Origin: Sphagnum magellanicum
Taxonomy: Eukaryota; Streptophyta; Sphagnopsida; Sphagnales; Sphagnaceae
Direction: 5' to 3'
Length of the DNA stretch: 64,000 nt
Assembly: GCA_021904315.1 (NCBI GenBank)
Contig: CM038916.1
Span: 4,402,001 to 4,466,000 of the forward strand
Made by a program: the position numbers and the translations under genes. This document shows, piece by piece, positions 8,940-60,600 of the stretch (within the stretch, counting starts at the first letter, position 1; the number at the start of each line of letters is the position of its first letter). The notes below the pieces were generated by a model. The model ran no database searches and was not told the DNA's origin. It worked only from the letters and a program-made list of their open reading frames with translations.

Positions 8940-11661
8940 TTAAATCCCTTTGTTACAATGTAGGAAAAAATGTTTTTCCATGTCATACCCAATCATTATT
9001 AATGCAAAATTGAATTTGCTTATATGTTTTTCACTTGCAATACTTGATGCGGTTTCAGATGAAAGTTGTTTTTTCAAATTGCAACACCCATTTAAATCAA
9101 GCTTTTGGAGTGCATTCAATTGGCCAATAGATGAAGGTAATTCTTTCAAGTTCGACACCACAACAAATCAAGCTTTGGGAGTGCATTCAATTAGCCAATA
9201 GATGAAGGTAGTTCTTTCAAGTTGTCACACCATGACAAATCAAGCTTTTGGAGTGCATTTAATTGGTTAATAGATGAAGGTAATTCTTTCAAATTGTCAC
9301 ACCATGACAAATTAAACTCTTGGAGTGCATTCAATTGGCCAATAGATGAAGGTAGTTTTTTCAAGTTGTAACACCCTCTCAAATCAAACTCTTGGAGTGC
9401 ATTCAATTGGCCAATAGATGAAGGTACTTCTTTCAAGTTGTAACACCTTTTCAAATCAAGCTCTTGGAATGCATTTAATTAACTAATAGATGAAGGTAGT
9501 TTTTTCAAATTGTAACACCATGACAAATCAAGCTCTTGGAGTGCATTCAATTGGCCAATAGATGAAGGTGGTTTTTTCAAGTTGGAACATGATAATAAAC
9601 CAAGCTTTTGGAGTGCATTCAATTGGCCAATAGATGAAGGTAGTTTTTTCAAGTTGTCACACCATGACAAATCAAGCTTTCAGAGTGCATTTAATTGGTT
9701 AATAGATGAAGGTAATTCTTTCAAATTGTCACACCATGACAAATCAAGCTTTTGGAGTGCATTCAATTGGCCAATAGATGAAGGTAATTTTTTCAAATTC
9801 GACACCACAACAAATCAAGCTTTGGGAGTGCATTCAATTGGCCAATAGATGAAGGTAGTTCTTTCAAGTTGTCACACCATGACAAATCAAGCTTTCGGAG
9901 TGCATTTAATTGGTTAATTGATGGAGGTAATTTTTTCAAATTGTAACACCATGACAAATCAAATTCTTGGAGTGCATTCAATTGGCCAATAGATGAAGGT
10001 AGTTCTTTCAAGTTTTTCAATTTTTTCAAATTGTAACACCATGACAAATCAAGCTTTTGAAGTGCATTTAATTGGTTAATAGATGGAGGTAGTTTTTTCA
10101 AATTGTAACACCATGACAAATCAAATTCTTGGAGTGCATTTAATTAGCCAATAGATGAAGGTATTTCTTTCAAGTTGGAACACCCTAACAAGTAAAACTT
10201 TTGGAGTGCATTCAATTGGCCAATAAATGAAGGTAGTTATTTCAAGTTGTAACACCTTTTCAAATCAAGCTTTTGAAGTGCATTCAATTGGCTAATAAAT
10301 GAAGGTAGTTTTTTAAAGTTGGAACACCCTCTCAAATCAAGTTGTTGGAGTGCATTCAATTGACCAATAGATGAAGGTAGTTTTTTCAAGTTGGAACACC
10401 CTAACAAATCAAGCTTTTGAAGTGCATTCAATTGGCCAATAGATGAAGGTAGCTCTTTCAAATTGCAACATTCTCTCAAATCAAGCTCTTGGAGTGCATT
10501 CAATTGACCAATAGATGAAGGTAGTTCTTTCAAATTGGAACACCTTCTCAAATCAAGCGCTTGGAGTGCATTCAATTGACCAATAGATGAAGGTAGTTCT
10601 TTCAAGTTGGAACACCCTCTCAAATAAAGCTTTTGGAGTGCATTCAATTGGCCAATAGATGAAGGTAGTTCTTTCAAGTTGTAACACTCTCTCAAATCAA
10701 GCTCTTGGAGTGCATTCAATTGACCAATAGATGAAGGTAGTTCTTTCAAGTTATAACACCCTATCAAATCAAGCTCTTGGAGTGCATTCAATTGGCCAAT
10801 AGATGAAGGTACTTCTTTCAAGTTGGAACACCCTGTCAAATCAAGCTCTTGGAGTGCATTCAATTGGCCAATAAATGAAGGTAGCTCTTTCAAATTGTAA
10901 CATTCTTTCAAATCAAGCTTTTGAAGTGCATTCAATTGGCCAATAAATGAAGGTAGTTCTTTCAAGTTGGAACACCTTGACAAATCAAGCTCTTGGAGTG
11001 CATTCAATTGACCAATAGATGAAGGTAGTTTTTTCAAGTTGGAACACCCTATCAAATCAAGCTCTCGGAGTGCATTCAATTGGCCAATAGATGAAGGTAG
11101 TTCTTTCAAGTTGGAACAACTTGTCAAATAAAGCTTTTGGAGTGCATTCAATTGGCTAATAGATGAAGGTAGTTTTTTCAAGTTGAAACACTTGCCCAAA
11201 ATAAACTCTTGGAGTGCATTCTATTGGCCAATAGATGAAGGTAGTTTTTTCAACTTGAAACACCTTGACAAATCAAACTTTTGGAGTGCATTCAATTGGC
11301 CAATAGATGTAGGCAATTTTTGCAAGCTCCCACACCCTACCAAATCAAATTCTTGGAGTGTTTTTAATCGGCCAACAGATGAAGGTATTTTTTCTAAACT
11401 TTGGCATTGTGCCAAATCAAATACTTGTAATTGTAAACAATAAAACAAATTATTTGGCAACTTTCGAATCATGCATTTTTTGAGGCACAACCACTTAACG
11501 TTATTCAAATTTCGCCCTTGGATGAAATTTTTCACTATAGTTGGTGAAGCTTTTGTTAGGTCAACCAACCTAAGGTTGTGAAATCCCTTTGAGCCGATTT
11601 GGGACAATGTAGGGAAATCGACACATTTTTTCAATGAGATGCCTTCTAAATTTTCCACCAC
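8940..11661 (-). pseudogene. HNL exon: LRR domain with expanded array
   Basis: The exon opens after an acceptor (gtgacag) with 'VVENLEGISLKKC', a normal divergent LRR start. It then enters an array whose unit is 24 residues: 'LNALQELDL' x C 'NLKELPSSIGQ'. The opening about seven repeats are diverse; the rest are near copies. In-frame stops occur at about 11219, 10235 and others, and two frame changes lie between about 9455 and 9800 and near 9150. Past 9060 the reading turns non-repetitive ('SSETASSIASEKH') and stops near 8940; whether that is the true C-terminus is unknown. Usual plant LRR domains have irregular repeats, so this regularity is unusual. Confidence 0.85.
9060..11340 (-). repeat. 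Tandem array of about 31 near-identical 72-bp LRR units
   Basis: The unit is 72 bp, readable on the plus strand as 'gagtgcattcaattggcca' followed by 'atagatgaaggtag', 'tttcaagttg' and 'acaccc...aaatcaag'. Units differ at a few positions, mostly in the residues flanking Cys and in the Glu/Lys before Leu-Pro. Higher-order structure is present: the multi-unit blocks starting near 9145 and 9790 share the same unit order and the same one-base-short unit ('ttcgacaccacaac' at 9151 and 9798). That points to block duplication or gene conversion. Confidence 0.9.
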
Positions 11662-11847
11662 CTGTCACATGAAATGAAAACAAAAAGGATTATCAATATA
11701 AAAACAAATTCATCCTAATGCCAATTTTTATTAAAAAAACATGTATTCACAAAATTAAAACTCAAAATTAAAACATTTCATTCTAGACATGAAAAATTCA
11801 TAGGAAATAAAAATAAAATTATAGGATTGCAATAGTATGATGACAAC

Positions 11848-12353
11848 CTCATCCTTTTGTAAAAGGAAATTTGACTCATTTGATTTCCATATAAATCGAT
11901 TCACAATTAGAAGTTCCATTGCAATATTTTGACCCATCTCTTGTAATTGTTCATTTATGTACAAGATTCCATCTTCTACCAATTGGACTAAAGATCTATG
12001 TTGCAAATTTTGTAATTCAAACTTCCGGTTTAAATAATCTCCATTCCACACTCGACAAATTGTACTTATTTTCAAACCACCCAAAAAACAAGCAATATCC
12101 AAAAACATGTTTTGATGTTGTTTATCCAAATGGTCATAAGAAATCTTCAATACATTCCAAAGCTCTTCATCATCATTGCCCCTCATGAGATTTTGCCCAC
12201 TTTTCAATTTTCTCAATGCACCTTGCCAGGTTTCTAATTCTTTAGTATTGCACAAAAAAGAACCCAATACTTTAAGACTTAAAGGGAGCCCCCCACAAGC
12301 TTTTATAATATTCATACATATGTCTTTAAAATCCTTTGTTGGAACATGGTTTG
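11848..12353 (-). CDS. HNL exon: NB-ARC, second part (GLPL to MHD region)
   Basis: On the far side of the LTR the minus-strand reading gives 'CGGLPLSLKVLGSFL' (GLPL), 'WNVLKISYDHLDKQ', then 'NMFLDIACFLGG' (the RNBS-D form typical of TNL-clade NB-ARC). It ends 'LVEDGILYINEQLQEMGQ', which occupies the place of the MHD motif. The MHD tripeptide reads INE, a departure from the usual Met-His-Asp that normally holds the switch off. A GTTGTC donor follows 'LLQKDE' near 11848. The frame is open throughout. Confidence 0.82.
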
Positions 12354-13173
12354 TGTCGCAACCCCACTTTGGCCAAGTGTGGGGGTGAAGCCCAACATTT
12401 GGAAAAGTTGGAGGTTGGGAGTCTTCCGGGACTCTCAAATGTTCAGAGCTTAACAACAAGGCCCAAAACACCTCGCATTGGGGTGTTCTTGGTGTCATTG
12501 GAAAGGTCTTGAAACTTAGATATCGAAAATGCCCTCGCATTGACAATTCGGACATCTGCAGCCCAAGTTATGGGCAAAAGAAGGGCCGGGAGTCAAATTG
12601 CCAGTTTGACTCCCGACCACTAAAAGTCGGGAATCGACCTCTTCCCGACGTCCGATTTGAGCGTGCGACATGGCGTTGGAAAGATCTTGACAAGGGCTAC
12701 AACTTTGGTTCAGACCTCGTCACGATCCAACTCTGCAGTCGGGAGTTATGGCGGTTCAAAGTTTTGAGAGTCTCGCCGGGACAATTTCGAGACTCCATTT
12801 CGGGAATCCCGAGAATTTGTGCCATTCGGATGTAGCCTCCGCGACCAGCCGCAGAGAATACTATATGGGGGAAGGTGGTGGCTTCCCCCGAGTCCGGGCC
12901 GTGGTGAGTCTTGTGTGTCCAAATGCCCGTGGCAAGTCCCAACACCAAAGGGTGTCCCGAATGCTAAACTAACCCGATTTGGGTGGTTTTTGGATGCAGA
13001 TTCACATGAGCTAAGTTAGTCCTTCTTCCTAGTCTAATTCCGGGGCTCCCAACTCGACCCTCTACCCCTTTCTAGAGTTGGAAGCCGGGAGCGTGCTACC
13101 AAGTTCAACTTTCCGCAACTTGACTTTGTGAAACCCTCAAGTGGGTTTCACCCCGTGACTTGGGAGCGCGTCA
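12354..13173 (+). mobile_element. Solo LTR of the ~820-bp family, inside the NB-ARC exon
   Basis: This 820-bp TG...CA unit starts TGTCGCAACCCC and ends GGGAGCGCGTCA. It is flanked by perfect 5-bp duplications GTTTG (12349-12353 and 13174-13178), and no internal region is present. It matches six other copies in the window. Solo LTRs form by recombination between the two LTRs of one element, so a full element once sat here. It splits the NB-ARC coding exon of the resistance-gene relative between RNBS-C and GLPL. The three open frames of 60-110 codons within it are LTR sequence, not genes. Confidence 0.92.
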
Positions 13174-13728
13174 GTTTGCATTACCAAATGCATGGAACAT
13201 AAATAGTTCCTTTGCTTGCTCTTCTTCCAAAGATTTCATGACCACTTTTCCATCTTCACTTACATGAGATTTTAGAATTTGCCAATTTCGACAATTCACA
13301 AGTACTTTGCTTTTAGAAGTTACATTTTTGGTATCAATGAGAAGTTGCAAGGATGTAAGGTTCTCCATTTTACCAACATCATCCACCACCACTAATACTT
13401 TTTTCGATATCATACATTGCCTAATTCGGTCAAGGTCATCTTGATTCACATTTTCATCTTTGCATAACCTTTTGCCACACAAATCATGTAGGAGTTGTTT
13501 TATGACATCGTTGATATTGTCCTTTGATTTCACATCCTCCAAAAAACTAAATTTGTCATATTGGTTGTGGAACAAATGATAAATTTTTTTGCTCAAAGTG
13601 GTTTTCCCAATCCCACCCATTCCAACCAAACCAACAATAGATTCCTTTTGTAACAAGATGTTTATGTCTTTTGCTTTGTCAATCAACGCCACCTCATGAT
13701 ATGGCAAACGTGGAAACAATATATTTTT
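13174..13728 (-). CDS. HNL exon: NB-ARC, first part (P-loop to RNBS-C)
   Basis: After an acceptor (ttttgacag) the exon reads 'KNILFPRLPYHEVALIDKA', then the P-loop 'GLVGMGGIGKTT'. RNBS-A-like 'FSFLEDVKS', kinase-2 'KVLVVVDDVGK', RNBS-B-like 'SKVLVNCRN' and RNBS-C 'AKELFMFHAFGNAN' follow. The P-loop Lys/Thr and the kinase-2 Asp pair needed for nucleotide binding are present. RNBS-A and kinase-2 look more TNL-like than CNL-like. The open stretch stops exactly at a 5-bp duplication (GTTTG, 13174-13178) that flanks the inserted LTR; the NB-ARC motif order continues on the far side of the insertion. Confidence 0.88.
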
Positions 13729-13895
13729 CTGTCAAAATTCACAAAATATAGGTCATTTATATGTTATCTTTTTTATTTAATAACCAATATATATGACATT
13801 GCATATGCGATACACATCAAGTGTGTTATGACCTAATGTGTATCAAATTACATGAACATATATGAAATGAAAAGACTTAGATTTGATGTTTTTAC

Positions 13896-14048
13896 CTCCA
13901 TACATATTTTCAAACATTTTAACAATAAAGAATAACTTGGATGATCTTTGTTTGGTGGCTTGCAAATTGTCAAATGATTAGCATCCTTAATTTTGTAATG
14001 GTTGTTGTTTGACAACTGAATAGCTGAGGCATATGGCACTAAAATTCC
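13896..14048 (-). CDS. HNL exon: C-terminal hydrolase segment with catalytic His
   Basis: An exon of exactly 51 codons, phase 0 at both ends, between an acceptor (aaatgcag) and a GTAAAA donor. It reads 'GILVPYASA' then 'YKIKDANHLTICKPPNKDHPSY' in two adjoining pieces and ends 'LKICME'. The His in NHLTICKP matches the catalytic His position of SERAC1-like hydrolases, so Ser and His of the triad are both visible. The preceding exon also ends in phase 0, so these two would join in frame. A 167-bp intron separates it from the NB-ARC exon. Confidence 0.78.
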
Positions 14049-14560
14049 CTGCATTTGCAAAAGATTACGTTAATGGAACTCATTGACTTGTTTGTTCACT
14101 TATGCTTTAACTTATAAGTAATATAGTAATTTCAAATGTTGGTGGAAATTAAGTTTATAACTATTGATGTTTGAATCAGAATGAAATATTTTGTGTAAAA
14201 ATAATTTCCTTCAACCCTTTGGCAAGCAAATTATATAAATACAGCACAAAGTTATTGGTCTTTAATCTCATTAATCTTACATGTTTTAATGATGTTATTA
14301 TTTTCCTTTAAAATATTTATATGGAATTGATTTAATGAAGGGAAAATTTTAAACCTATTTCCTAATGTTTGAAATCAATCAAATTTCCTTTCCATCAATA
14401 GTAATTCATGAAACAAAATTCATAAAACACATGACCCATTCACCAGATTAATATATTTAAAAGTATTGAACCCTTGATCCCAGACAAGTTTTGACAATAA
14501 AAATGTTCAACTATTGAACCAAGTTGGATAACTTTCAATGTGGTGAAATGAAAATCTTAC

Positions 14561-14953
14561 CCAATTCTCATCGACTGGTAAGCCTTCACCAAATGCGTAA
14601 ATGTTGAGGTCTTCACGAACATCATTTTTAAAATCCGTTGAAAGGTGCTCCATTTGTGGGTTGAAAGATTCTAATTTTTTTTGAAAACTATATTTTGTTG
14701 CATACTCACTCAATGTCTTGATTTGTTGATGTTTCCAAATGAAATAATTTGATAAAGATTGGGTACCACCAACATGTGGTACACTATAAAATATTACACC
14801 TTTAACATTGTTCAAAAATGTCTTACAACATTTGTGTACTTCATTATCCAAATCATTTATTAACCTTTGATGTACATGTTTGCGAGCTTCAACCATCAAG
14901 CTTTTGAGTACAAAACCTCCAAAACTATAAGCAACTAATGCCACCGGTCCATC
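14561..14953 (-). CDS. HNL exon: nucleophile-elbow half of alpha/beta-hydrolase
   Basis: This exon opens after an acceptor (cctttag) with 'DGPVALVAYSFGGFVLKSL'. The Ser in YSFGG sits at the nucleophile elbow (G/A-x-S-x-G), and 'VKGVIFYSVPHVGG' follows, a strand-loop typical of SERAC1-like hydrolases. It ends with 'GEGLPVDENW' at a GTAAG donor in phase 0. The first Gly of the usual GxSxG is Ala here, which is tolerated in some hydrolases. There are 131 uninterrupted codons, so this part has decayed little. It is separated from the next exon by a 512-bp AT-rich intron. Confidence 0.78.
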
Positions 14954-15709
14954 CTAAAGGGATTGATAACTACAAAATATTCAACAATGCACCAAAATTT
15001 TGTTATCAACATTATATTAGCATGTACAAATTTATCTTATTATTCTTGAGGCAATTTTCCAATTCACACATGACTTAAGCCATAAGTTCATAATTGATTT
15101 GCTCATCATTTTTCATTTTTCATTTATTCATTCCATTAATCTACCTAAAAAATGTGACAACCATGTTTTGGTAAAACTATTATTATGTACAAGTATGTAC
15201 GTGTTTACATTCTTGTGTTTATGTATAACTCCTCTTCTATGTGTTAATTTAGAAATATTGTTGAAATAAAAAGAAATTTAAATTAAAAAAAAGATATACC
15301 CTTTTATGGAAATAAATTTTTTGCAATGAAATGGATGCAAACTTTCTACACATGTATTAATATAATTTAATTTAATTCAATTGTAGTACCACAGATAAAG
15401 TTTCAAAAACATGAATTAAAAATTGCCATTAAAACCAAACTAGTTGTACCATGAACTTATAATATGAACATAGGCTTTGCTATTATCTTCAAACAAGAAC
15501 ATTTGCATTTTAGCCCCATTTTATGTTCTCGTACATGAATCTAATGATTCAAATAAATTGAAACTTGTTGGTGTGTATCACAATACTAGCACACATGAAC
15601 AATTAATTCGTGCAAAACATTTTAAAAATTCTAAAGTTGCAAACAATTATCTTTAATGTACATAAGGATTAACAATTAATGTGTCCATAAATAAAGGAGA
15701 TTGTCATAC

Positions 15710-16008
15710 CTTGAATTTGTAACCAAACTTTGAATGAGGTTTTTGGCAATTTCAGTCACATCATTGTGAACACTTGCCACAATGTTAGAATCATAGGACA
15801 ATGATAAAATTTGAACATTGTTGTTCAAGTCTTCGGGTAGCCACTTTTTTGGCCAACATATGCACTCTTCTCTATTGTTGGTGGGGCATGTTGTCCATGT
15901 TTCCTTCCATTCATCATTTGTGCCAAAAGTAATCCCATGAAAAAAAATGATGGTCAAGTTTGGATTATTGGAATTGCAAGTGGGATTCAAATCATGCACT
16001 AGATATTT
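15710..16008 (-). CDS. HNL exon: N-terminal half of alpha/beta-hydrolase
   Basis: The reading begins after an acceptor (tttatttgcag) with 'KYLVHDLNP' and runs to 'QSLVTNSR' before a GTATG donor. It contains 'LTIIFFHGI', the beta-strand plus oxyanion-hole segment of serine alpha/beta-hydrolases. 'DEWKETWTT', 'CWPKKWLPEDL' and 'VQILSLSYDS' follow, an order typical of SERAC1/lipase-like plant proteins. The frame is open for about 100 codons. It ends in phase 2, whereas the next recognised exon opens in phase 0, so either a very small exon lies in the 756-bp gap or the junction has decayed. The initiating exon is not identified; no convincing Met with a donor was seen in 16009-16780. Confidence 0.72.
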
Positions 16009-17193: not shown

Positions 17194-17950
17194 TACTGAA
17201 ATTCTTTTTGCTCACTGCTCTCATAAAACCTGCTACAAATCCTTTGCCATCCCAATACATACACAGGGTATGATGGGTGTCCCTCACATCACAGATTCCC
17301 ACAAGCTAAGCTGATATTTCCACTAGATCTCCCCAAAAAACATCAACCCCTTTCCTCTTCACGATGAAACTCCCTGGAATTCTCACACTCTTCTCTCACT
17401 CCTTTCGACTTTTCTTGCAGATGTTTTTTCTTCTTCATTTTCTCCTCGCCCAGAAACTTCTAGAAGGGTTTTGCCATGACTCTTCAGACTCTAGCATACG
17501 CGCTTTACCGAGGTCTTGGCCACTGAACTTCTCTGGAACACATGTGTCTATTTTCTACTCATAATTGAGGATGGAACATGCAATGTCAGGTTGAGACTTG
17601 TCAAACGCGCTTTACTTTTTCCCTCTGGCCTCCTCCATTATTATCATCATGACTTTTGTTCACCTCTACACACTGACCTTTCTTTTACCGAAAAACTGTA
17701 GCGGAAAAAAAGCTAAGTCATAAATTTAAAAAGTGCTAAAATCAAATTTTTTTGAGATTCTCAATAGCCGAAATTAAACCAAATTCAAAGAAAAATCGTT
17801 AGATTTCCTTACATGGTTTTCATGTAGGTAGCCAAAAATAAGAGAAATATGTTTAAAATTTTCTAATGCCATATTTAGCTCATAGCTTAATCTGACTAAT
17901 CTTCCTACCGATGACAGCCACTTGGGCTATATCTCAAAACTGACACAATA
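17194..17950. other. Unassigned, relatively GC-richer stretch
   Basis: Short open frames exist here (17364-17564 plus, starting with a hydrophobic leader), but no family is recognisable. The base composition resembles gene-flanking DNA more than the surrounding AT-rich repeats. Confidence 0.25.
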
Positions 17951-18273
17951 AATTATTCATCCACACTTTTCCTGCTGTTGGCTGATTTCACCCAGTGCAT
18001 CATTGAAGCGCTCTGCCAGAGCTCATGTTGCAGGCAATGCATGATTAATTGGGCCAAAAAATTATTCATCCACACGTTTCCTGCTGTTGGCTGATTTCAC
18101 CCAGTGCATTTTTGAAGCGCTCTGCCAGAGCTCATGTTGCAGGCAATGCATGATTAATTGGGCCAAAAAATTATTCATCCACACGTTTCCTGCTGTTGGC
18201 TGATTTCACCCAGTGCATTTTTGAAGCGCTCTGCCAGAGCTCATGTTGCAGGCAATGCATGATTAATTGGGCC
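17951..18273 (+). repeat. 109-bp tandem repeat, three copies
   Basis: Units begin at 17951, 18060 and 18169 with 'aattattcatccacac'. The second and third look identical; the first differs at a few sites. Each contains 'gctgttggctgatttcac' and ends 'gattaattgggcc'. The near identity means the expansion is recent or is being homogenised. It is non-coding and has no clear link to a known satellite. Confidence 0.9.
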
Positions 18274-20143: not shown

Positions 20144-21644
20144 GTCGTGACATCAAAGGGGCAAACATCCTGGTTGATAACGGAGGACGTATCAAGCTTG
20201 CAGACTTTGGTGCATCCAAAAAGGTGGTTAAACTTGGAACGATTTCTGAAGCCAAGTCCATGAAAGGCACCCCTTACTGGATGGCTCCTGAGGTCATAAC
20301 TGGCAAGCTGATATGTCGAGTGTTGGCTGCACTGTGATTGAAATGGCGACTGGTAAACGTCCCTGGAGCCAGCAGTTCCAAGAGATAGTTGCATTGTTCC
20401 ACATTGGAACTACAAACTCACACCCTCCCATCCCTGACCATCTTTCTCGTCAAGGCAAGGATTTTCTCCTCTCAAGTGTCTCCAGAGGGAGCCCACACTG
20501 AGGCCTAGTGCAACTGAGCTTCTGAAGCATCCCTTCGTTCTCACCTGTGAAGATTCAGGGAGGATTAGATGGATCTGAGGACATACAACAACAACAAGCA
20601 GCTGATGGTCATTTGCAGCAGCAGCCGCCAAATAGGGGAAACACGGAATTGCGATCTGTGAAAGGTACACGGAGACAGATTGGCCAGGACAGCTGGAAGC
20701 CAACTGGCTTGGGAAGGGTTCCTCCTTTTCTTTCAGAGGCTCCCCATACTCCGTGAAGAATTTTCATGACATCAACTGGGCTTCCAGAAGGGTTGGGAAT
20801 TCAGACATGGACGACCTTAATTGTTTTGTGAGGTTGGACTCTGTAAGGTTCGATTCTATCCAACATGATACTTGGAATGAAAGCTATAACCCGGTGTCAG
20901 AGCCCTCATTTGTGGATGGCAACAACTGGAGGCTTCATCTGACAGCGAATGGAGGGTTCTCTGTAGGAGGACCTGTTGCTAATGGAGATCTTGCAAGCAT
21001 GGGGACCCGAGAATGTGAGCATAGTCTCGGGGAGAGGGGATGGTCTCTGCAGCAGCAGGAGGAAGATGAAGTGACAGAATCCAAGATTCATGCCTTCTTG
21101 GATGAGAAGGCTTCGGAGCTCAAAAGGCTCCAGACACCACTCCAGGAGGAACTTTATGAGACCTCAATGAGGAGCTCAAATTCCTGCATCAACTAGGCCT
21201 GCAGAGAGCTTTATTGCACCTTTGAACCCTGCTATTGCGAAACAACAAACGCACAGCCCCAGCAAATCACCGGGCTGTCTCAGTGGAAGGTCAATTGGAA
21301 TCAGAAGCAGCCAAGAGAGTGAGACGAGTGTGAGTTCTGGGAGCCCCAGTGGAACTGGAGCACCTTCTCCCAGTGTCAATTGTTCCCTTATTTTGGAAAT
21401 TCCGTCAGCAAGGTTGAATGAATTGAAAGGTCTTATTAATGACACACAGCAACCCCTACCGAGCCCTAGTCTGAGTTCTAGTGAGCGTCAAAGGCTGTGC
21501 AAAGAGGAGCTTGAGCAGGAGCTTAGAATGAAGCGAGAGGAGAAACGAAAGCAATTGGCTAAACAGGGCTCTCCAATGTCTCCACCCAACTCCAAGGGGC
21601 TTCAACGACCTGCCAGTCGGCTGGCTACTCCTTCCGAAATTTAG
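20144..21644 (+). pseudogene. Intron-less, 5'-truncated copy of an NPK1/ANP-type MAPKKK
   Basis: The copy starts at the catalytic loop with '[13 protein letters not shown]', continues '[11 protein letters not shown]' (DFG), '[15 protein letters not shown]' (activation segment and APE), '[13 protein letters not shown]' and '[14 protein letters not shown]', then '[21 protein letters not shown]' in two pieces. The NPK1/ANP C-terminal region follows, with 'FLDEKASELKRLQTPL' and a Ser/Pro-rich tail ending 'RLATPSEI' and a stop at 21644. ANP/NPK1 kinases activate the MAPK cascades of cytokinesis and stress. The glycine loop and catalytic Lys are absent. At least four frame changes occur (near 20305, 20485, 20545, 21190). 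Angiosperm ANP genes are intron-rich, so the lack of introns suggests a retrocopy. Confidence 0.85.
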
Positions 21645-33220: not shown

Positions 33221-33464
33221 TGTCGCAACCCCACTTTGGCCAAGTGTGAGGGTGAAGTCCAACACTTGGAAAAGTTGGAGGTTGGGAGTCTTCCGGGACT
33301 CCCGAATGTTCAGAGCTCGACAGCAAGGGGCAAAACACCTCGCATTGGGGTGTTCTTGGTGTCATTGGAAAGGTCTTGAAACGTAGATATCGAAAATGCC
33401 CTCGCATTGGCAATTCGGACATCTGCAGCCCAAGTTATGGGCAAAAGAAGGGCCAGGAGTCAAA
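33221..33464 (+). mobile_element. Fragment of the ~820-bp LTR family
   Basis: It begins TGTCGCAACCCC and follows the 12354 copy closely for 244 bp, to the start of the conserved inverted repeat. It then adjoins copia sequence. It is partial and broken; the left end sits in the MULE arm. Confidence 0.85.
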
Positions 33465-33763: not shown

Positions 33764-36065
33764 CTAGCTAGCCATCTCATCAAACACAACATCTCTACTC
33801 ACTTGCAACTTCCGAGTGGAAGGACTGAAACATCTATATCCCTTTTGTTTTGAGGAGTATCCAATGAAGATACATTTTTCAGCTTTTGGGTCTAGTTTTG
33901 ATCTCTTCTCATCAGGAACATGCACATATGCAATGCAACCAAACACTCTGAGGTGTGAAACATCAGGTTTCTTGCCTGTGAATTTTTCTTCAGGTGTCAT
34001 GCCATGAACTGTCGCTGTGGGTGTTCGATTCATGATGTAGACTGCAGTTGCTACCACTTCAGCCCAAAAGTAATTTGGCAAATTCTTCTCATTCAACATG
34101 GCACATGTTATTTCTGCAATGTGCCTGTTTTTCCTTTCAGCAACTCCATTCTGTTGTGGGGAATAACTACATGAGTATTTCCTTTGAATCCCATGCTCCT
34201 TCAAGTACTCACTGAATTCATTTGAAAAATATTCTCCCCCTCCATCGGACCTTAGGCATTTGATGCTCACACCCTTCTCCTTCTCCACCATTGCTTTGAA
34301 ATGCAAAAAATGTTGAAACACTTCACCTTTGTGTTTCATGAAGTAGACCCACACCTTCCTTGTGTGGTCATCAATGAAACTCACGTAGTACTTGCATCCT
34401 CCAATGGATTCTGTCTTTGTGGTCCACACATCTGAGTGGATCATTTCCAAAGGTTTGGAACTTACATGAGTTGTTTGAGTTAAGAATGGATGTCTAGCTT
34501 GCTTCCCCAATTGGCATGTTTCACAAACCTCTGGCATCACCTCTTCTGCTCCAAATTTGGGAAGACCTCCAACAAGTTTTTGTTTCTCCATGAGCTTAAG
34601 ACGTTGGAGATTAACATGGCCAACTCGCTTGTGCCAAATTCCAATGTCTCCAGCTCCTTTTCCATGTGTGAATAACATGGAATTCACCTCAGGCATGTTC
34701 ACATCCAAGGTGAACATTCGTCCATTCCTTTCCCCTTTTGTAATCAATTTGCCTTGGTTCTTCATATCTTCCACAAAGCACCCATTTGGGTTGAATGTCA
34801 CCTGTAAACCTTGTTCCACCATCTGGCCTACGGAGACCAAATTTTTTGTTATGGTTGGAACATGAAGTACATCTTTCAAGTACTTTGTTTGCCCATCTTG
34901 CATGGACAATGGCACCTTGCCAATTTGTGTGATGAGATGTGTAGTGTCATCACCAGTTTCCACAAACCCTAGTGTCTTCAAATCCTTTGCGTCTCTAAAC
35001 CATTCTCCATGGCTAGTCATGTGATTTGAAGCTCCAGAATCCACATACCAGACATTGTTGTCTGATACACCTCCTATCATTGAATTTGCCATGTGCTGCA
35101 TCACAAACAGTTGCTCATCACCTTGATTGCTAATTGATGCATAATTCCCTTGTTGCAGCTTTCCATTTCGTGCATCATGCTCCCTTTGATAACAGTTCTT
35201 TGCCATGTGCCCAGATTTCTCGCAGTAGTAGCAATTTGAATCGCTGTTGGGTTGTTGACCTCGATGACTTCCACCACGACCTCCACGGCTTCCTAGACTT
35301 CCTCTTCCTCCAAAGTTTCCTTGTCCACCTCCATGAGCTTGACCTTCATGTTGATGATGTCCACCATGCGAGCTTCCGTGTCGACCTCGAAATGAGGTTT
35401 TACCACCGCTACCTCTACCTCTATTGATATTTGAGTAGAAAACACTTTCTTGTGATCCTCCATTGGATGAAGTACCAACAATTCTCATCTCTTCACTTAT
35501 AAGTAGTGTTATTAAATCTTGGAAGTTGGGAAATGTTTCTCGAACTGCAATTGAAGTACGGAACTGGCTATAGTCTTTTCCAAGTCCATTTAAGGTCACG
35601 GCCACTAAATCTTCATCATCTACATGGGCTCCTATAGATGCAAGAGCATCTGCAAGGTTTTTCACCTTTGTAGAATAGTCATTGATGTTCATTTTGTTTT
35701 TCTGGAGATTATGCAACTTTTACTTGAGCTGCATTTTGCGGGCTTGTGTATTGGTGCTATACATCTTCACCAATGTATCCCAAGCTTGCTTGGGTGATTT
35801 TGCATCTTGAATATGCACAATCATGGAATCGGACACACTCACAGAAAGCTAATACAAGACTTTCCTTTCTTTTTCATGCCAAGTTTTATTGGCTTGAATT
35901 TGTTGTTATGTGGGGTTTTCTGGGAGAGAAGGTTCTGTCTCATCACCAGTTACGAATTCCCAGTAGCCTTTCCCCATCAAGAAATTCCTAATCCTAAATT
36001 TTCACACTTGGAAATTATTCTTGTCTAGTTTCTCAATTGTAATTTGAGAAAGGCCGTCCGCCATC
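33764..36065 (-). CDS. Copia gag-protease-integrase region (fossil)
   Basis: This is the coding part of the partial copia element. Gag of the UBN2 type lies at the 5' end, then a Gly/Arg/His-rich stretch, one zinc knuckle, the protease active-site DSGA, and an integrase core with its D, D and E regions recognisable. The usual full copia polyprotein is about 1300-1400 residues; the reverse transcriptase half is not present here. The element is treated as broken. Plus-strand open frames across this region are antisense shadows. Confidence 0.9.
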
Positions 36066-42335: not shown

Positions 42336-43158
42336 TGTCGTAACCCCACTTTGAGGGAAGTGTGAGGTTGCCATTCACACTCCCGAAAATGGGATTTGGG
42401 AGTCCTTCGGGACTCCCAAAAATTTAGAACGCAATTACAAGGGTCAAAACACCTTGCATTGAAGTGTTATTTATACCATTGGAAAGGCCTTGAAGTGTAG
42501 ATGTCCAAAATGGCCTCGCATGAGCCATTTGGACATATGTAGCACAAGTTATGGTTAAAAGAAGGGCCGGGAGTCAGACTAGCAATTTGACTCCTGACCA
42601 CTAAAAGTTGGGAATCGATCCGATCCCGGTGTGTGCAGGTGGAGTGCAATACACCATTGGAAAGCTCTCAAGGAGAACTACAAGTTTGCTTTAGACCTCG
42701 TCCCAATTGGAGGTCGGAGTGAGAAGTTATGAACGCCCAAAGTCTCAGGAGTCCAAACTGGGACAGTTTCAGGACTCCACTTTGGGAGTCCCAGGAAAAA
42801 GTGCCATTCGGATGCAAGTGCGGCAGAGAGGCACAAAGAATACTATATGGGGGAAGGTGGTGGCTTCCCCTGAGTCCGGGCCGTGGTGAGTCAAATGAGT
42901 TTAGAATTGCCCGTGGCTTGTCCTAGCACCAAAGGTGTTTCATAATGTGTACTAACCAACTTGTTGGTTGGTTTTGGATGCAAGACCGAGTAACTAAATA
43001 GTTTGTCCCTCTTCCTAGTCTAATCCCGGAGCTTTCAACACGCCCCTCTTACCCCCCTTTAGTGCTGGAAGTTGGGAATGGCACCAAGTTCCAACTACTT
43101 CCGCTTTTTAACATAATTAGACCCTTTTGGGTCCAACAAGGGACTTGGGGGCATGTCA
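42336..43158 (+). mobile_element. Solo LTR of the ~820-bp family
   Basis: An 823-bp TG...CA unit flanked by a perfect 5-bp duplication ACATG (42331-42335 and 43159-43163). It carries the conserved inverted repeat near 42570 in a slightly diverged form. There is no internal region. Confidence 0.92.
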
Positions 43159-45626: not shown

Positions 45627-46545
45627 TGTTGCAACCCTAGCTTTGGGCTCGCGACCAAGGCAAAAGGGCTTGCAAGGGTGCGGGCCAAGACTAAGTCAAG
45701 GAGTCGCATTCTTATGCCCCCGAAAGTGCAAAAGAGTGTGAGGGAAAGAACCTTCACACTCCCAAGTGAACTCCCATGTTGGGAGTTGGAGTCCCAGTGG
45801 ACTCCTGAATGTTCAAAGAATGATTGCAAAGGTCAAAACTCAATGGCTTTAGTATTTCTTCATACCATTAAAAAGCTATTGAAATGTAAATGTCTAAAAT
45901 GGGTTCGAATCACCCATTTGGACATCTAAAACACAAGTTATGGGTAAAAGAAGGGCCAGGAGTCAAATTGGTAATTTGACTCCCGACCACTAAAAGTCGG
46001 GAATCAACCCGATTTCCTTGCGTGTAGGTGGTGTGCCACATACCATTAGAAAATCTCTCAATGAGGGTTATAACTTTGTTTCAGACCTCATCTCAATCGG
46101 AGGTCTGCGCACAAAGTTATGGGGCCCCAAAGTTGCGAGAGTCCCAACTTTGGCAATTTCGAGACTCCCACTTGGGAGTCTCGGGACAAAAAACCATTTG
46201 GATGTGGGTCTCGTGGAGAGGCACTGAGTATACTATAATGGGGAAGGTGGTGGCTTCCCCCAAGTCCGGGCCGTGTTGAGTCTTGTGAATCCGAGTTTAC
46301 CCGTGGCTCGTCCTAGCACCAAAAGTGCTCCAATTATGCACTAACCACCTTGTATTGGTTTTGTGTAGGTCCGTGTGATTAGTTGATGCTTGTCACTCTT
46401 CCTAGTCCCATCCCGGAGCTCCAACACGCCCTTCTACCCCTCAAAGTGTTGTGAGCCAAAGAGCGTGCCCCAACTCCTTACTTTTCCGTTGTTTTCAATT
46501 TGGACTCACATTTGAGTCCATTAAGGAGTTTGGGGGTGCGTCACA
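45627..46545 (+). mobile_element. LTR of the ~820-bp family with adjoining primer-binding-like site
   Basis: It starts TGTTGCAACCC and ends TGGGGGTGCGTCA (46543). It is longer (about 917 bp) than the other copies because of extra sequence near its start. Two bases after the terminal CA comes TGGTATCAAAGCC (46546-46558), resembling the initiator tRNA-Met primer site. So this copy seems to keep the edge of an internal region, unlike the solo copies. No second LTR in the same orientation lies downstream in the expected form. Partial and broken. Confidence 0.75.
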
Positions 46546-47547: not shown

Positions 47548-48366
47548 TGACGCGCTCCCAAGTCATGGGGTGAAACCCACTTGAGGGTTTCACAAAGTCA
47601 AGTTGCGGAAAGTTGAACTTGGTAGCACGCTCCCGGCTTCCAACTCTAGAAAGGGGTAGAGGGTCGAGTTGGGAGCCCCGGGATTAGACTAGGAAGAGGG
47701 ACTAGATTAGCTCGTGTGAATCTGCATCCAAAAACCAACCAAATCGGGTTAGTTTAGCATTTGGGACACCCTTTGGTGTTGGGACTTGCCACGGGCACTT
47801 GGACACACAAGACTCACCACGGCCCGGACTCGGGGGGAAGCCACCACCTTCCCCCATATAGTATTCTCTGCGGCTGGTCGCGGAGGCTACATCCGAATGG
47901 CATAAATTCCCGGGACTCCCGAAATGGAGTCCCGAAATTGTCCTGGTGGGACTCCCGGAACTTTGAACCGCCATAACTCTCGACTACAAAGTTGGATCGC
48001 AACGAGGTCTAAACCAAAGTTGTAGCCCTCGTCGAGATCTTTCCAACGCCATGTCGCGCGCTCAAATCGGACGTCTTGAAGAGGTCGATTCCTGACTTTT
48101 AGTGGTCGGGAGTCAAACTGCCAGTTTGACTCCCGGCCCTTCTTTTGCCCATAACTTGGGCTGCAGATGTCCGAATTGCCAATGCGAGGGCATTTTCGAT
48201 ATCTACATTTCAAGACCTTTCCAATGACTAAAAACACCCAAATGCGAGGTGTTTTGCCCCTTGCTGTCGAGCTCTAAACATTCGGGAGTCTCGGAAGACT
48301 CCCAACCTCCAACTTTTCCAAGTGTTGGGCTTCACCCCCACACTTGGCCAAAGTGGGGTTGCGACA
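47548..48366 (-). mobile_element. Solo LTR of the ~820-bp family (reverse)
   Basis: An 819-bp unit in reverse orientation, flanked by a perfect 5-bp duplication TTTTA (47543-47547 and 48367-48371). Of all copies it is the closest to 12354-13173 by eye, so these two may derive from one recent burst. Open frames of 60-116 codons inside are LTR sequence. Confidence 0.92.
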
Positions 48367-53012: not shown

Positions 53013-53950
53013 ATTCAAGTTGGTGCAATGGTTAAATGGTAAGTCATTCGATGTCGCAACCCCACTTTGAGGGAAGTGTGAGGTCGCCACTCACACTCCC
53101 GAAAATGGGACTTGGGAGCCCTCCGGGACTTCCGAAACTTCAGAGTTTGATTGAAGAGGTTAAAACACCTCACATTTGGGTGTTCTTTATATCATTAGAA
53201 AGGTCTTGAAGTGTAGATGTCCAAAATGGCCTTGCATGAACCATTTGAACATCTACAGCACAAATTATGGTTGAAATAAAGGTTGGGAGTCAAATTGGTA
53301 GTTTGACTCCCAACCACAAAAGGTCAGGAATCGACCCGATTCTGGTGTGTGCAAGTGGAGTGCGTCACACCATTGGAAAGCTCTCAAAAAGGGCTACAAG
53401 TTTGATTTAGACCTCATCCCAATCAGAGGTTGGGGCGAGAAGTTATGAGTGCCCAAAGTCCCGAGAGTCCAAATCAGGACAGTTTCGGGACTCCACTTTG
53501 GGAGTCCCGGGAAAAAATGCCATTTGGATGTAAGTGCGACGGTGAGACGTAGAGAATACTATATGGGAGAAGATGGTGGCTTCCCCTGAATCCGGGCCGT
53601 GGTGAGTCAAGTGAGTCCAAGGTTGCCCGTGGTTTGTCCTAGCACCAAAGGTGCTCCAGAATGCGAACTAACCAACTTGTTAGTTGGTTTGATGCAGGTT
53701 CAAGTGAGTAAATAGCTTGTCCCTCTTCGTAGTCAATCCTAGAGCTTTAGCACGCCCCTCTACCCCTTTTAGTGTTGAGAGCTGGAAGTGTGCCCCAAGT
53801 CCTCCCCAATTCCGCAACTTGAGTAACCTAATCCCAACTTGGGACTAACTAGGGATTTGGGAGCGTGTCATTCGGCATGGTTATTGACTGAAGGATCAAG
53901 GTTCATGGATCCAAATCCTTGTCTAGTCACATTCTTCTCTTGACATGTTT
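53013..53950 (+). mobile_element. Possible tRNA-derived SINE head split by a solo LTR
   Basis: A box A-like 'tggtgcaatggttaaatgg' (53021) precedes the LTR at 53052-53870, and a box B-like 'ggatccaaatcc' (about 53907) and 'cttctcttga' follow it. Together they resemble the element at 16780. The spacing after allowing for the insertion is tRNA-like, but no tail or flanking duplication was delimited. Confidence 0.35.
53052..53870 (+). mobile_element. Solo LTR of the ~820-bp family
   Basis: An 819-bp TG...CA unit. Flanks are TTCGA (53047-53051) and TTCGG (53871-53875), a duplication with one difference, which suggests an older insertion than those with perfect flanks. Its conserved inverted repeat has changed on both arms in a matching way (GGTTGGG / CCCAACC). 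Confidence 0.88.
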
Positions 53951-57600: not shown

Positions 57601-60600
57601 AATGGCGGTTTTGTACTAGTCCCTCAGTGTTATGGAAATATGATGGTATCTAGAAAAACCATTTAAGAATGTATAAACCTCATGTCTAATTACAATGTTA
57701 ATAACCTCATTAATAAGAGGTAATGGGTATGGGTCTTTTTTAGTAGAAGCATTAAACTTTTAAAAATCCACACAAATTTTTAGTTTCCCATTTTTCTTAG
57801 GCACTACAACTATAGGTGATAGCTAAGTAACCTCTTCAACATGTTCAATAAAACCTGCAACAAGCAATTTATCAATATCTTATTTGATAATAATTGCATA
57901 GTTAGGATTTAACCAGTACCTTGTTCGATGAGTAGGTGGTATCGATGTCTCCAACTCAATTTGATGTTGAATTATTTTAGGTGATATACCTTTTAAATCC
58001 TTATAAGTCCATGCAAAGATGTCTTTGAATTCCTTTAGCAATTCAATCAGCTAATAATTGCGTACAACATGTTCCAAGTCAACTCTAATTTTAACTTGTT
58101 GCAGGTTTTCTTTAAAACCTAAGTTGATCTTGGTTAATTACTCTTCTTTGGTGATAATCCATTTAATAATGCGAAGATTTTGAACTATAATTCAAGCAGG
58201 CATCTTGTGAATCTCCATTTTTCCTATTTCAAGTTGGAAGAAAGTTTCTAGTAAATGTTATTTGAAAGTACTAGGGGGTATAACTATTTTAATAGGTAGT
58301 ACAAATATCAATTCGACAGGTATATTAAACAAAATAGGTAGTATAGATATAAGTTCAATATGTTCAATTATATTCAAACTTGTTGATGTAATCAACTTCA
58401 TAAGTTGATCTAACCAGATTCATATAAAGATAACATGTTATGGTTCCTACTGAAAATAGTCATGGTTCTATAGGAAACATCAAATCCTCTTCTTTGTTAA
58501 AAATTCCAAAATGGAAATCGTAACAAACTAACATTTCTAGATGCTTAATTAGTGTTTTAAGTTTCTTAGTAACATGTATGGTTCTAATTGTACTGGTTCC
58601 TTGTATAATGATAGTATCGTTGCCCTAATCATGAGACATTTTAACAACCCTTACCAAGGTCAGCCTAACAACATAAAATAGTTAAAATCTAACACACTAC
58701 TTTGAATTATAATGAAAGTCACTACATAGGGAATTCCATGAACAAGAATCTTAAGATCTTTTATCAGACCTAAAGGTTTAACAATGTTTGATCAGCCATG
58801 TGTAGGGTGTGAATTTTGGTTTTAATAGACCTAATTGCCCTTTCAACTTTGTCGTAATGATATTAATTCTAGAACCACCATCTAAAAGTACATCTTCAAT
58901 AAAATTCATCCCTACTTGAATTCGTATCATTGCCATCTAATGATCAATGGCAATTGATGCAACTTTCGGTTTTGGTAAAACATGTTTTGATGGTATTAGG
59001 TTAAAAATGTAATGTTTGATATTAGGGATCATTCACAACAATTGACCCAAGTTCAATGTATACTTGGTCTCCAAGACTTGTTTGTTGATATCCCGTTGAA
59101 TTTTTTCTAAAGTCTTATTTGTTGTAATTTGTTTTGAAATCATAGGTTGTCAATTTACATCACCAATTCAATTAATTTCAACTAGTTTAATTATAGTAAA
59201 ATTATCAAGTTGTCTAACCTAATTACTCTATAATGATTCCTCATTGATGATAGTAGGTTGTTTATTAGTCCCACCATGTTGTAGTTGTTTAATAATTTTA
59301 ATAAATGAATCATGTAAACTGTCGCAACCCTACTTAAAGGGAGTGTGAGGATGAAACTCACATTTTCGAATTTGGGACTTAGGAGTCCTCCAGGACTCCC
59401 AAAACTTCAAAGTTCGATTGTAGGGGTCAAAACACAAATTGGGGTATTCTTTATATTATTGAAAAGCTATTGAAATGCAAATGTTGAAAATGGCCTCACA
59501 TGGGCCATTTGGACATATGCAACACAAGTTATGGCAAAAAGAAGGGTCGGGAGTCAAATTACCAGTTTGACTCCCGACCACTAAAAGTCGAGAATCGACC
59601 CGACCCTTATGCGTGCAGGTGAAGTGTAACACATTATTGGAAAGCTCTCGAGGAGAGCTACAAGTTTACTTAAAACCTCATCCCAATTGGAGATCTGAGC
59701 AAAGAGTTATGATCGCTCAAAGTCCCGATAGTCCAAACCGGGACAGTTTTAGGACTCCTCCTTGGGAGTCCCGAAACAAAAAGCCATTCAGATGTGGGTG
59801 CCGCGGAGAGGCACATAGTATACTATATGGGGGAAGGTGGTGGCTTCCCTCAAGTCCAGGCCGGTGTGAGTCAAGTGAATCCAGAGTTGCCCGTGGCTTG
59901 TCCTAGCACCAAAGGTGTTCCAAAATGTGAACTAACCAACTTGTTGGTTGGTTTGATGCAGGTTCCAGTAAGTGAATAGTCTATCACTCTTCCTAGTCCC
60001 ATCTCGGAGCTTCAACATGCCCCTCTACCCCTTCTAGTGCTGAAAGCTAGGAACATGCCCCAAGTTCTTCACAATTCCGCTGTGAGAGTAACTTAGACCC
60101 AACTTGAGTCTAACTAGGGATTTGGGAGCGCGTCACGTAAACACTATTCTTGTTACCAATCTTTAGCTCTTTTGGCTTTAACCAACTCCCTTTTTAGCAC
60201 ATGTTGTTTGGACTATTGATTATGACTGGTAATAGTAGTTACTACATTAACTGCCACATTGTTAATTTTAGGTGGTTTAAGTGATGTCATAGCATTAAAA
60301 CTAACAAGTTTAGTTTTGAACATGTTTTGTACTTCAATCTTCCTAGAGCATTCTCCATATTTATGTTTTTTAGTAAAACAAATTATATAGGGATAACAAA
60401 TGGGTATTCTTCCTAGTTTGACAAGTTGGGTTTTAATTTTTGTTATAAGTTTTGTAGATTTAAATGTAACAGTTGGTACACTTGGTACCTCTTTTTTCTT
60501 GTTATGGCAAGTCTCTACTAAATGACCAGTTTTATCACAATTGGTATAGGTTAATGTTGATTTAGTTGTAACAACAAGTATTATAGGTTTAATTATTGTA

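What the first reader, a model, noticed from the sequence alone, without database searches (positions are those of the whole stretch)
8940..16008. A hydrolase-NBS-LRR (HNL) immune-receptor relative in a probable seed-plant genome
Three spliced exons of a SERAC1-like alpha/beta-hydrolase (HG oxyanion, YSFGG nucleophile elbow, NHLTICKP His) lie directly upstream, same strand, of an NB-ARC exon with P-loop, kinase-2, GLPL and RNBS-D, then LRRs. HNLs are established in liverworts. Finding the architecture next to gymnosperm-like repeats would bear on how widely this class survived. The Ser and His of the hydrolase triad are retained, suggesting a catalytic ancestor. The MHD position reads INE, which is unusual.
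Basis: partly seen in the sequence, partly recalled or inferred. Interest (0 to 1): 0.8.

Follow-up and report, generated by a model that had tools for sequence, protein, structure and literature searches.

The report
Broken hydrolase-type plant immune receptor gene
A plant genome carries the remains of a rare kind of immune-receptor gene, one with an enzyme of the esterase type at its front end; this copy has been knocked out by a jumping-gene remnant and by stop codons, and whether its host is a seed plant, which would make it noteworthy, could not be settled here.

Summary
The minus strand carries three exons of a SERAC1/sesB-like alpha/beta-hydrolase (16008-13896), a TNL-type NB-ARC (13728-11848) and about 32 leucine-rich repeats (11661-~9045). 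The hydrolase/NB-ARC and NB-ARC/LRR introns are phase 0, as published for liverwort HNL genes; a TIR-NB-ARC gene met here has phase 2. The NB-ARC exon has no start codon before its P-loop and closed frame upstream, so one transcript is the likeliest reading. Earlier, the array looks like a diversifying sensor: nonsynonymous change is concentrated at LxLxxCx positions. The hydrolase shares Ser, Glu and His with all eight bacterial relatives aligned, one of them a cyanobacterial hydrolase-NB-ARC-WD40 protein. The host could not be identified, so a seed-plant HNL remains untested.

The parts
15710..16008 (-). Hydrolase exon E2 (99 codons and 2 bases): oxyanion motif FFHG, CWPKKWLPEDL, YDSN; acceptor TTTGCAG, donor AAG|GTATGA, ends in phase 2
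   Evidence: motifs shared with bacterial relatives
14561..14953 (-). Hydrolase exon E3 (131 codons): nucleophile AYSFGG, VIFYSVPHVGG, acid FGE; donor TGG|GTAAGA phase 0; starts in phase 0, which does not fit the end of E2
   Evidence: weak DUF676 hits
13896..14048 (-). Hydrolase exon E4 (51 codons): VPYASA, catalytic-type His in NHLTICKP; phase 0 at both ends
13174..13728 (-). NB-ARC exon, 5' part (185 codons): linker, P-loop, kinase-2, RNBS-B, RNBS-C; first Met lies in the P-loop, in-frame stops just upstream of the acceptor
   Evidence: Pfam NB-ARC 2.1e-22; Roq1 1.9e-15
12354..13173 (.). Solo LTR (820 bp) inserted in the NB-ARC exon; ends TG...CA, duplication GTTTG on both sides; puts a TGA at once into the NB-ARC frame
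   Evidence: 93.7% identical copy at 47548-48366 and further copies in the window
11848..12351 (-). NB-ARC exon, 3' part (168 codons): GLPL, FLDIACF, winged helix, INE at the MHD position; donor in phase 0
   Evidence: WHD_ROQ1 1.1e-09; Roq1 8.7e-17
9045..11661 (-). LRR exon E6: phase-0 acceptor, irregular first LRRs, then about 32 units of 72 bp (NALQELDLxxCxNLKELPSSIGQL); six in-register nonsense codons (11223, 10239, 10146, 9682, 9481, 9193) and two 71-bp units (9834, 9187); 3' end not determined

Best explanation
This is a recently dead member of the hydrolase-NBS-LRR (HNL, Hyd-NLR) class. SHOWN: one strand carries, in order, a SERAC1/sesB-like hydrolase with its Ser, Glu and His kept, a TNL-type NB-ARC with winged helix, and a long LRR array, with intron phases at the domain borders that fit HNL genes; the copy is broken by a solo LTR, nonsense codons and frame breaks. 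INFERRED: in intact relatives the LRR array senses a pathogen effector or its effect, the NB-ARC exchanges nucleotide and oligomerises, and the clustered hydrolase domains then act as an esterase or lipase whose products or membrane effects trigger defence and cell death, where TNLs use TIR enzyme activity. The LRR array grew by tandem duplication of a 72-bp unit under selection for variety on its ligand face before the gene was lost. The present copy could make at most a fragment, not a receptor.
For: Hydrolase: PADLOC DUF626_VIII 2.3e-6 over residues 33-276 of 282; tblastn to 12 of 72,556 plasmid records, 9 of the 12 with at least 80% coverage, best 2e-11; H24, G25, S110, G112, G113, E223 and H256 identical in 9 of 9 sequences. 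One gene: phase 0 on both sides of E3/E4, E4/E5 and E5/E6; first Met of the NB-ARC exon lies in the P-loop and stops lie just upstream. Class: HNL phases 0 and TNL phase 2 (PMC3352924 sections 8 and 13); a TIR-NB-ARC gene in L009 shows phase 2 (sequence). NB-ARC type: Roq1 best for both parts, WHD_ROQ1. Sensor past: pN/pS 2.29 at four LxLxxCx positions (bootstrap 1.47-5.31) against a bootstrap median of 0.46 (0.34-0.63) at the other twenty; AF2 model of the 327-residue stop-free stretch, pLDDT 94.9, regular strands in register with xLDLx. Death. Function of the class: two Marchantia hydrolase domains gave cell-death-like responses and ion leakage in N. benthamiana (PMC11218826 section 8).
Against: No transcript and no intact paralogue could be examined, so the single transcript rests on splice logic. 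The hydrolase has more exons than the two published for Marchantia HNLs, and positions could not be compared. It is only 18-25% identical to the bacterial relatives, and its Pfam DUF676 hit (0.00072, 19.6 bits) is below the curated cutoff of 20.3. For the 5' NB-ARC part the second TNL-like entry, 7crb (RPP1 by recall), scores only 0.00061, worse than the CNL Sr35 at 1.4e-7, so the TNL call rests on Roq1, on the 3' part and on the winged helix. The four pN/pS positions were chosen after the variation table had been seen; a wider set of six positions gives only 1.33 (other eighteen 0.39), the whole unit 0.82, and the two wrong frames 0.40 and 1.20; repeats are not independent. E3 alone gave no usable AF2 model (pLDDT 39.9).
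Confidence: 0.85

Rival explanations
1. Two neighbouring genes: a free-standing SERAC1-like hydrolase gene ending after E4, followed by an N-terminally degraded TIR-NB-ARC-LRR gene whose TIR exon has been lost.
For: Hydrolases of this family also occur outside NLR proteins (for example the ABC-3C relatives in L004 and L008). Reading past the E4 donor meets a stop after 15 further codons.
Against: The E4 donor and the NB-ARC acceptor are 167 bp apart and both phase 0, whereas a lost TIR exon would leave a phase-2 acceptor. The NB-ARC exon has no start codon before the P-loop. Six open frames of the locus were scanned with Pfam (E4 not among them) and no TIR family is among the hits shown (25 of 26 hits shown for one frame); introns and intergenic stretches were not scanned for TIR.
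Confidence: 0.09
2. A functional gene with unusual splicing: the LTR is removed like an intron or supplies an early end, giving a hydrolase plus half-NB-ARC protein that acts without LRRs, as TIR-only proteins do.
For: All 634 codons of E2, E3, E4 and the two NB-ARC parts are free of stops, so the 5' half looks better preserved than the LRR exon.
Against: E2 and E3 do not join in frame with the strong donor; the weak in-frame donor TTG|GTTACA would remove residues at places where all eight aligned bacterial relatives have residues. The LTR brings an immediate TGA.
Confidence: 0.06
3. The host is a bryophyte, so this is an ordinary broken HNL in a lineage where the class is already known.
For: The hydrolase-NLRs named in the passages I saw are from liverworts and mosses (PMC3352924, PMC11218826, PMC10952240). 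Nothing in the window identified the host.
Against: Weak only: strongly depleted CpG (observed/expected 0.29) and a repeat-rich window, which from recall suit large, heavily methylated genomes such as those of gymnosperms or ferns.
Confidence: 0.35

Closest known systems
HNL / Hyd-NLR class of Marchantia polymorpha and of Sphagnum and Ceratodon mosses
   Same: N-terminal alpha/beta-hydrolase, NB-ARC near the TNL type, C-terminal LRRs; phase-0 introns inside the hydrolase (E3/E4), at hydrolase/NB-ARC and at NB-ARC/LRR
   Different: More exons in the hydrolase than the two published for Marchantia; a very regular array of about 32 LRRs; this copy is a pseudogene; direct sequence comparison was not possible
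TIR-NB-ARC-LRR receptors (TNL; Roq1)
   Same: NB-ARC with FLDIACF and Roq1-type winged helix; phase-0 intron between NB-ARC and LRR
   Different: No TIR domain found; N-terminal hydrolase; phase-0 instead of phase-2 intron before the NB-ARC
Fungal NLRs with sesB-like (SERAC1-like) hydrolase domains
   Same: Same general design: lipase-like hydrolase as N-terminal effector of an NLR (PMC4986451, passages)
   Different: Among their annotated C-terminal repeats the paper's passages name ankyrin, WD40 and TPR, not plant LRRs
Bacterial hydrolases of PADLOC family PDLC02918 (DUF626_VIII), including Gloeothece hydrolase-NB-ARC-WD40 (WP_012599445.1), proteins matching PD-Lambda-4_A and ABC-3C proteins
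   Same: Near full-length relationship of the hydrolase; HG, WP, Ser, Glu, His and PH identical in 9 of 9; one of the eight is fused to NB-ARC
   Different: Only 18-25% identity; other sensor and ATPase modules; families catalogued for anti-phage defence

Membership tests
HNL (hydrolase-NBS-LRR) | N-terminal alpha/beta-hydrolase domain | tested here: met
   (Pfam just under cutoff; PADLOC 2.3e-6; tblastn 2e-11; profile finds esterases and lipases, best 9.4e-6)
HNL (hydrolase-NBS-LRR) | NB-ARC domain followed by LRRs on the same strand | tested here: met
   (NB-ARC 2.1e-22 and 1.6e-08; LRR_14 8.6e-60)
HNL (hydrolase-NBS-LRR) | Phase-0 intron between hydrolase and NB-ARC (TNL has phase 2) | tested here: met
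   a TIR-NB-ARC gene shows phase 2 (sequence); published phases in PMC3352924
HNL (hydrolase-NBS-LRR) | Phase-0 intron inside the hydrolase, splitting it into two exons | tested here: inconclusive
   E3/E4 is phase 0, but the hydrolase has at least three exons here and E2/E3 does not match in phase; position not comparable without Marchantia sequences
HNL (hydrolase-NBS-LRR) | Phase-0 intron between NB-ARC and LRR | tested here: met
   GATGAG|GTTGTC / TGACAG|GTGGTG
HNL (hydrolase-NBS-LRR) | NB-ARC belongs to the TNL/PNL/HNL superclass, not CNL | tested here: met
   Similarity only, no tree. 5' part: Roq1 1.9e-15, ADR2 1.7e-8, CNL Sr35 1.4e-7, 7crb only 0.00061. 3' part: Roq1 8.7e-17, 7crb 7e-10, At5g66900 2.6e-8, ADR1 3.9e-7, NRC4 2e-5. 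WHD_ROQ1 1.1e-09
HNL (hydrolase-NBS-LRR) | Sequence grouping with bryophyte HNLs in an NB-ARC or hydrolase tree | not testable with these tools
   no plant proteome or genome collection offered; own genome not held
HNL (hydrolase-NBS-LRR) | Hydrolase, NB-ARC and LRR in one transcript | not testable with these tools
   no RNA data; indirect support only (phases, no start before the P-loop)
HNL (hydrolase-NBS-LRR) | Intact reading frame in this copy (a working receptor) | tested here: not met
   solo LTR, six nonsense codons, two frame breaks, E2/E3 mismatch. Lowers 'working receptor', not class
TNL | N-terminal TIR domain and phase-2 TIR/NB-ARC intron | tested here: not met
   N-terminal exons are hydrolase; intron is phase 0; no TIR among the Pfam hits shown for six open frames

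The most novel reading that the evidence does not exclude
The host is a gymnosperm, and the hydrolase-NLR class known from liverworts and mosses survived into seed plants, keeping its intron phases and running a large, rapidly diversifying LRR sensor until recently; hydrolase-NLRs would then be an old land-plant class lost in flowering plants, with an effector enzyme of the same family as those in bacterial NLR-like defence proteins.
Probability: 0.4. Interest if true: 0.7.

Novelty: new member of a known kind. Interest (0 to 1): 0.48.

Why it matters
If the host is a seed plant, it extends a class that one of the papers seen calls bryophyte-specific (PMC12512272), and makes it testable whether hydrolase-based signalling was an ancestral option of land-plant NLRs that flowering plants lost. 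A related hydrolase in a plant NLR, in fungal NLRs and in bacterial NLR-like proteins (one fused to NB-ARC in a cyanobacterium) bears on the open question of what these hydrolases cut. If the host is a bryophyte, it is an ordinary pseudogene of a known class.

Tried and rejected
Own genome: none held. Viral contigs with E3 and the 5' NB-ARC part as proteins (3 and 6 pattern matches, none confirmed) and with one LTR and one LRR DNA pattern (no match). GTDB contigs with the hydrolase (21 pattern matches, none confirmed). Rfam and tRNA scans of the window: nothing, so no host clue. tblastn of the parts against the window itself found no second copy of E2, E3 or either NB-ARC part (E4 was given there in a wrong frame, put right). 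PDB by sequence with the hydrolase alone: 8 hits, best E 0.15, read as chance; with the nine-sequence profile: lipases and esterases, best 6wpx, 9.4e-6. AF2 of E3 alone: pLDDT 39.9, useless. NB-ARC parts against plasmids: 74 and 8 records, weak STAND or ABC-type hits among those listed, plus one record that holds plant DNA. Considered and rejected: the weak donor TTG|GTTACA for E2; a 7-bp duplication at 12347/13192 that the script also offered for the LTR, because the copies of the repeat end at 12354 and 13173; separate hydrolase and NB-ARC genes (rival 1). Exon 1 was looked for by eye in three frames and not found; E2 already starts about where the bacterial proteins start, so it may be only a few codons.

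Literature: ten searches of the held library were used (the last was on bacterial Lamassu). No title or abstract opening in the listings names an HNL in a gymnosperm; one search listed 15 of 32 papers. Papers seen: PMC3352924 (sections 8, 13 and passages), PMC11218826 (sections 7, 8 and passages), PMC12512272 (section 10 and passages), PMC10952240, PMC4986451, PMC9815663, PMC6691002, PMC11075562 and PMC11126693 (passages found by word); the rest only as listings. The library lacks most subscription papers and no supplements could be read, so this is weak evidence of absence. PMC11218826 surveyed three gymnosperms, says Hyd-NLRs are enriched within nonflowering lineages, and gives per-species counts in a figure and supplement that I did not see.
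Full report
WHAT IS THERE. The window's minus strand, read from high to low coordinates, carries a gene-like series: E2 16008-15710, E3 14953-14561, E4 14048-13896, an NB-ARC exon 13728-11848 and an LRR exon from 11661 to about 9045. The four introns between them measure 756, 512, 167 and 186 bp, each with GT and AG ends. E2 starts at a TTTGCAG acceptor in phase 0, so at least one more 5' coding exon existed; I did not find it. The 3' end of the LRR exon was not determined.

THE HYDROLASE. The spliced E2-X-E3-E4 protein (282 residues) scores 19.6 bits for Pfam DUF676, just under the cutoff of 20.3 (E 0.00072), and E 2.3e-6 for PADLOC family PDLC02918 over residues 33-276. tblastn against 72,556 plasmid records (E limit 1) finds 12 records, 9 of them with at least 80% of the query, best E 2e-11. 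I fetched 8 of the 12. In the nine-sequence alignment the oxyanion HG, a WP pair, S110 with GG after it, PH, E223 and H256 are identical in 9 of 9; overall identity of the window protein to the others is only 18-25%. Calling Ser, Glu and His a catalytic triad is inference from the alpha/beta-hydrolase fold. A profile of the nine finds esterases and lipases among solved structures (best 6wpx, 9.4e-6), while the window sequence alone finds nothing better than 0.15.

WHO ELSE HAS IT. One of the eight bacterial relatives fetched, from the cyanobacterium Gloeothece (L001), is a single 1411-residue protein with the hydrolase, an NB-ARC (Pfam 4e-14) and WD40 repeats. Two are annotated as ABC-three-component system proteins, two match PD-Lambda-4_A (L002, L005) and one carries TPRs in the same protein (L006). 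Pfam was run on 4 of the 8 and PADLOC on 7 of the 8; all seven hit PDLC02918 (L003 was not scanned). So the hydrolase belongs to a family repeatedly placed beside NLR-like or other defence modules.

THE NB-ARC. Both parts match the TNL Roq1 best among solved structures (1.9e-15 and 8.7e-17). For the 5' part the next are ADR2 (1.7e-8) and the CNL Sr35 (1.4e-7), while the other TNL-like entry 7crb, RPP1 by recall, scores only 0.00061; for the 3' part 7crb is second (7e-10), then At5g66900 (2.6e-8), ADR1 (3.9e-7), an unnamed NB-ARC protein (1.1e-6) and, further down, NRC4 (2e-5). Pfam adds the Roq1 winged helix (1.1e-09). The MHD position aligns as INE. [quoted passage not shown] No tree was made.

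ONE GENE OR TWO. The E4 donor and NB-ARC acceptor are both phase 0 and 167 bp apart. The first methionine of the NB-ARC exon is codon 37, inside the P-loop, and the frame upstream of the acceptor is closed by stops, so this exon cannot start its own protein with a complete P-loop region. Read past its donor, E4 meets a stop after 15 codons, so a separate hydrolase gene is not excluded by that alone. In PMC3352924 (sections 8 and 13) HNL genes have phase-0 introns inside the hydrolase, between hydrolase and NBS and between NBS and LRR, while TNL genes have phase 2 before the NBS. As a check on the method, a TIR-NB-ARC gene that turned up in L009 shows phase 2 at that place (my reading of the sequence printed). 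The window gene has phase 0 at E3/E4, E4/E5 and E5/E6; the phase at E4/E5 speaks against a recent swap of the TIR exon of a TNL. Against full identity with Marchantia HNLs: the hydrolase here has at least three exons rather than two, and E2/E3 is not phase 0 with its strong donor.

THE COPY IS DEAD. (a) 12354-13173 is an 820-bp repeat with ends TG...CA and an exact 5-bp duplication GTTTG, the signature of a solo LTR. Related copies lie at 47548-48366 (93.7% identical, duplication TTTTA), 42336-43158 (duplication ACATG), 53052-53870, 59320-60136, 45779-46544 and, in part, 33221-33464; of the six copies tested for it, 3 show an exact 5-bp duplication with TG...CA ends and 3 do not. The insert separates FHAFGNAN from NHVPTKDFKD and brings a TGA at once. 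(b) The LRR exon has in-register nonsense codons at 11223, 10239, 10146, 9682, 9481 and 9193, and 71-bp units at 9834 and 9187; two further stops printed (9795, 9148) follow from the frame breaks and are not counted. (c) E2 ends in phase 2 at AAG|GTATGA, and E3 has a TAG directly before its first codon, so the two do not join in frame; the in-frame donor TTG|GTTACA is weak and would delete residues where the relatives have residues. The other 634 codons are free of stops, so the loss looks recent, or the sequence is in part erroneous; sequencing error would not explain an LTR with a target duplication.

THE SENSOR BEFORE ITS DEATH. Tandem Repeats Finder sees 13.3 + 19.1 copies of a 72-bp unit. 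In 27 units that could be kept in register (those with frame breaks and the stretch with an 18-bp insertion were dropped), pN/pS is 2.29 at the four variable positions of LDLxxCx (bootstrap 1.47-5.31); at the other twenty the bootstrap median is 0.46 (0.34-0.63). Against this: those positions were named after one search had shown where the variation lies; a wider set of six positions gives 1.33 and the remaining eighteen 0.39; the whole unit gives 0.82, between the two wrong frames (0.40 and 1.20); and repeats share ancestry. The positions are nevertheless those expected from LRR structure (general knowledge), and an AF2 model of the 327-residue stop-free stretch (pLDDT 94.9) puts regular strands at xLDLx. 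I read this as past selection for variety on the ligand face.

MECHANISM. Most likely, in intact relatives: ligand sensing by the LRR, nucleotide exchange and oligomerisation by the NB-ARC, then hydrolase action on an ester or lipid as the immune signal. All three steps are inferred from the families; the nearest experiment in print that I saw is that two Marchantia hydrolase domains caused cell-death-like responses and ion leakage in N. benthamiana (PMC11218826 section 8). For the present copy no working receptor can be expected.

HOST AND NOVELTY. The host could not be identified. CpG observed/expected is 0.29 and G+C 36%; this fits large methylated plant genomes from recall but does not decide between gymnosperm, fern and bryophyte. 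[quoted passage not shown] PMC11218826 section 7); PMC11218826 says only that they are enriched within nonflowering lineages, and PMC12512272 calls them lineage-specific to bryophytes (background passage). Two conifer NLR papers and one wide survey that I searched by word have no occurrence of hydrolase in the main text (PMC6691002; PMC11075562; PMC11126693). No listing of the ten literature searches names a gymnosperm HNL in a title or abstract opening. I therefore file it as a new member of a known kind, with a seed-plant HNL as the open, more interesting reading.

Noticed in passing
L009 (CP036489.1, Rahnella aquatilis plasmid pMEM40-2, 11942-20319): This public 'bacterial plasmid' record carries what looks like plant TNL genes (TIR-like open frames, NB-ARC 1.9e-23, WHD_ROQ1 9.6e-18, LRRs, a phase-2 intron): plant contamination or a chimeric assembly.
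   Followed up: partly
L001:203-4438: Cyanobacterial protein WP_012599445.1 joins the same hydrolase family to NB-ARC and WD40 repeats in one ORF, a bacterial counterpart of an HNL in design.
   Followed up: partly
window 12354-13173, 33221-33464, 42336-43158, 45779-46544, 47548-48366, 53052-53870, 59320-60136: One LTR family is present in seven copies or pieces in 64 kb, three of them with exact 5-bp duplications as solo LTRs; I did not see a complete element of this family.
   Followed up: partly
window 33764-35719 (-): 651-codon open Copia gag-integrase frame (SH3_retrovirus, Pol_BBD, gag_pre-integrs, rve).
   Followed up: no
window 17946-18273: Three copies of a 109-bp tandem repeat, 98% alike.
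   Followed up: no
window 20636-21644 (+): Two overlapping open frames (186 and 157 codons) in the G+C-richest 2 kb of the window, with no Pfam hit up to 0.01; possibly exons of another gene.
   Followed up: no
window 11661-9045 (-): All six in-register nonsense codons of the gene lie in the LRR array and none in the 634 codons of the other exons; duplication of units that already held a stop may be part of the reason.
   Followed up: no
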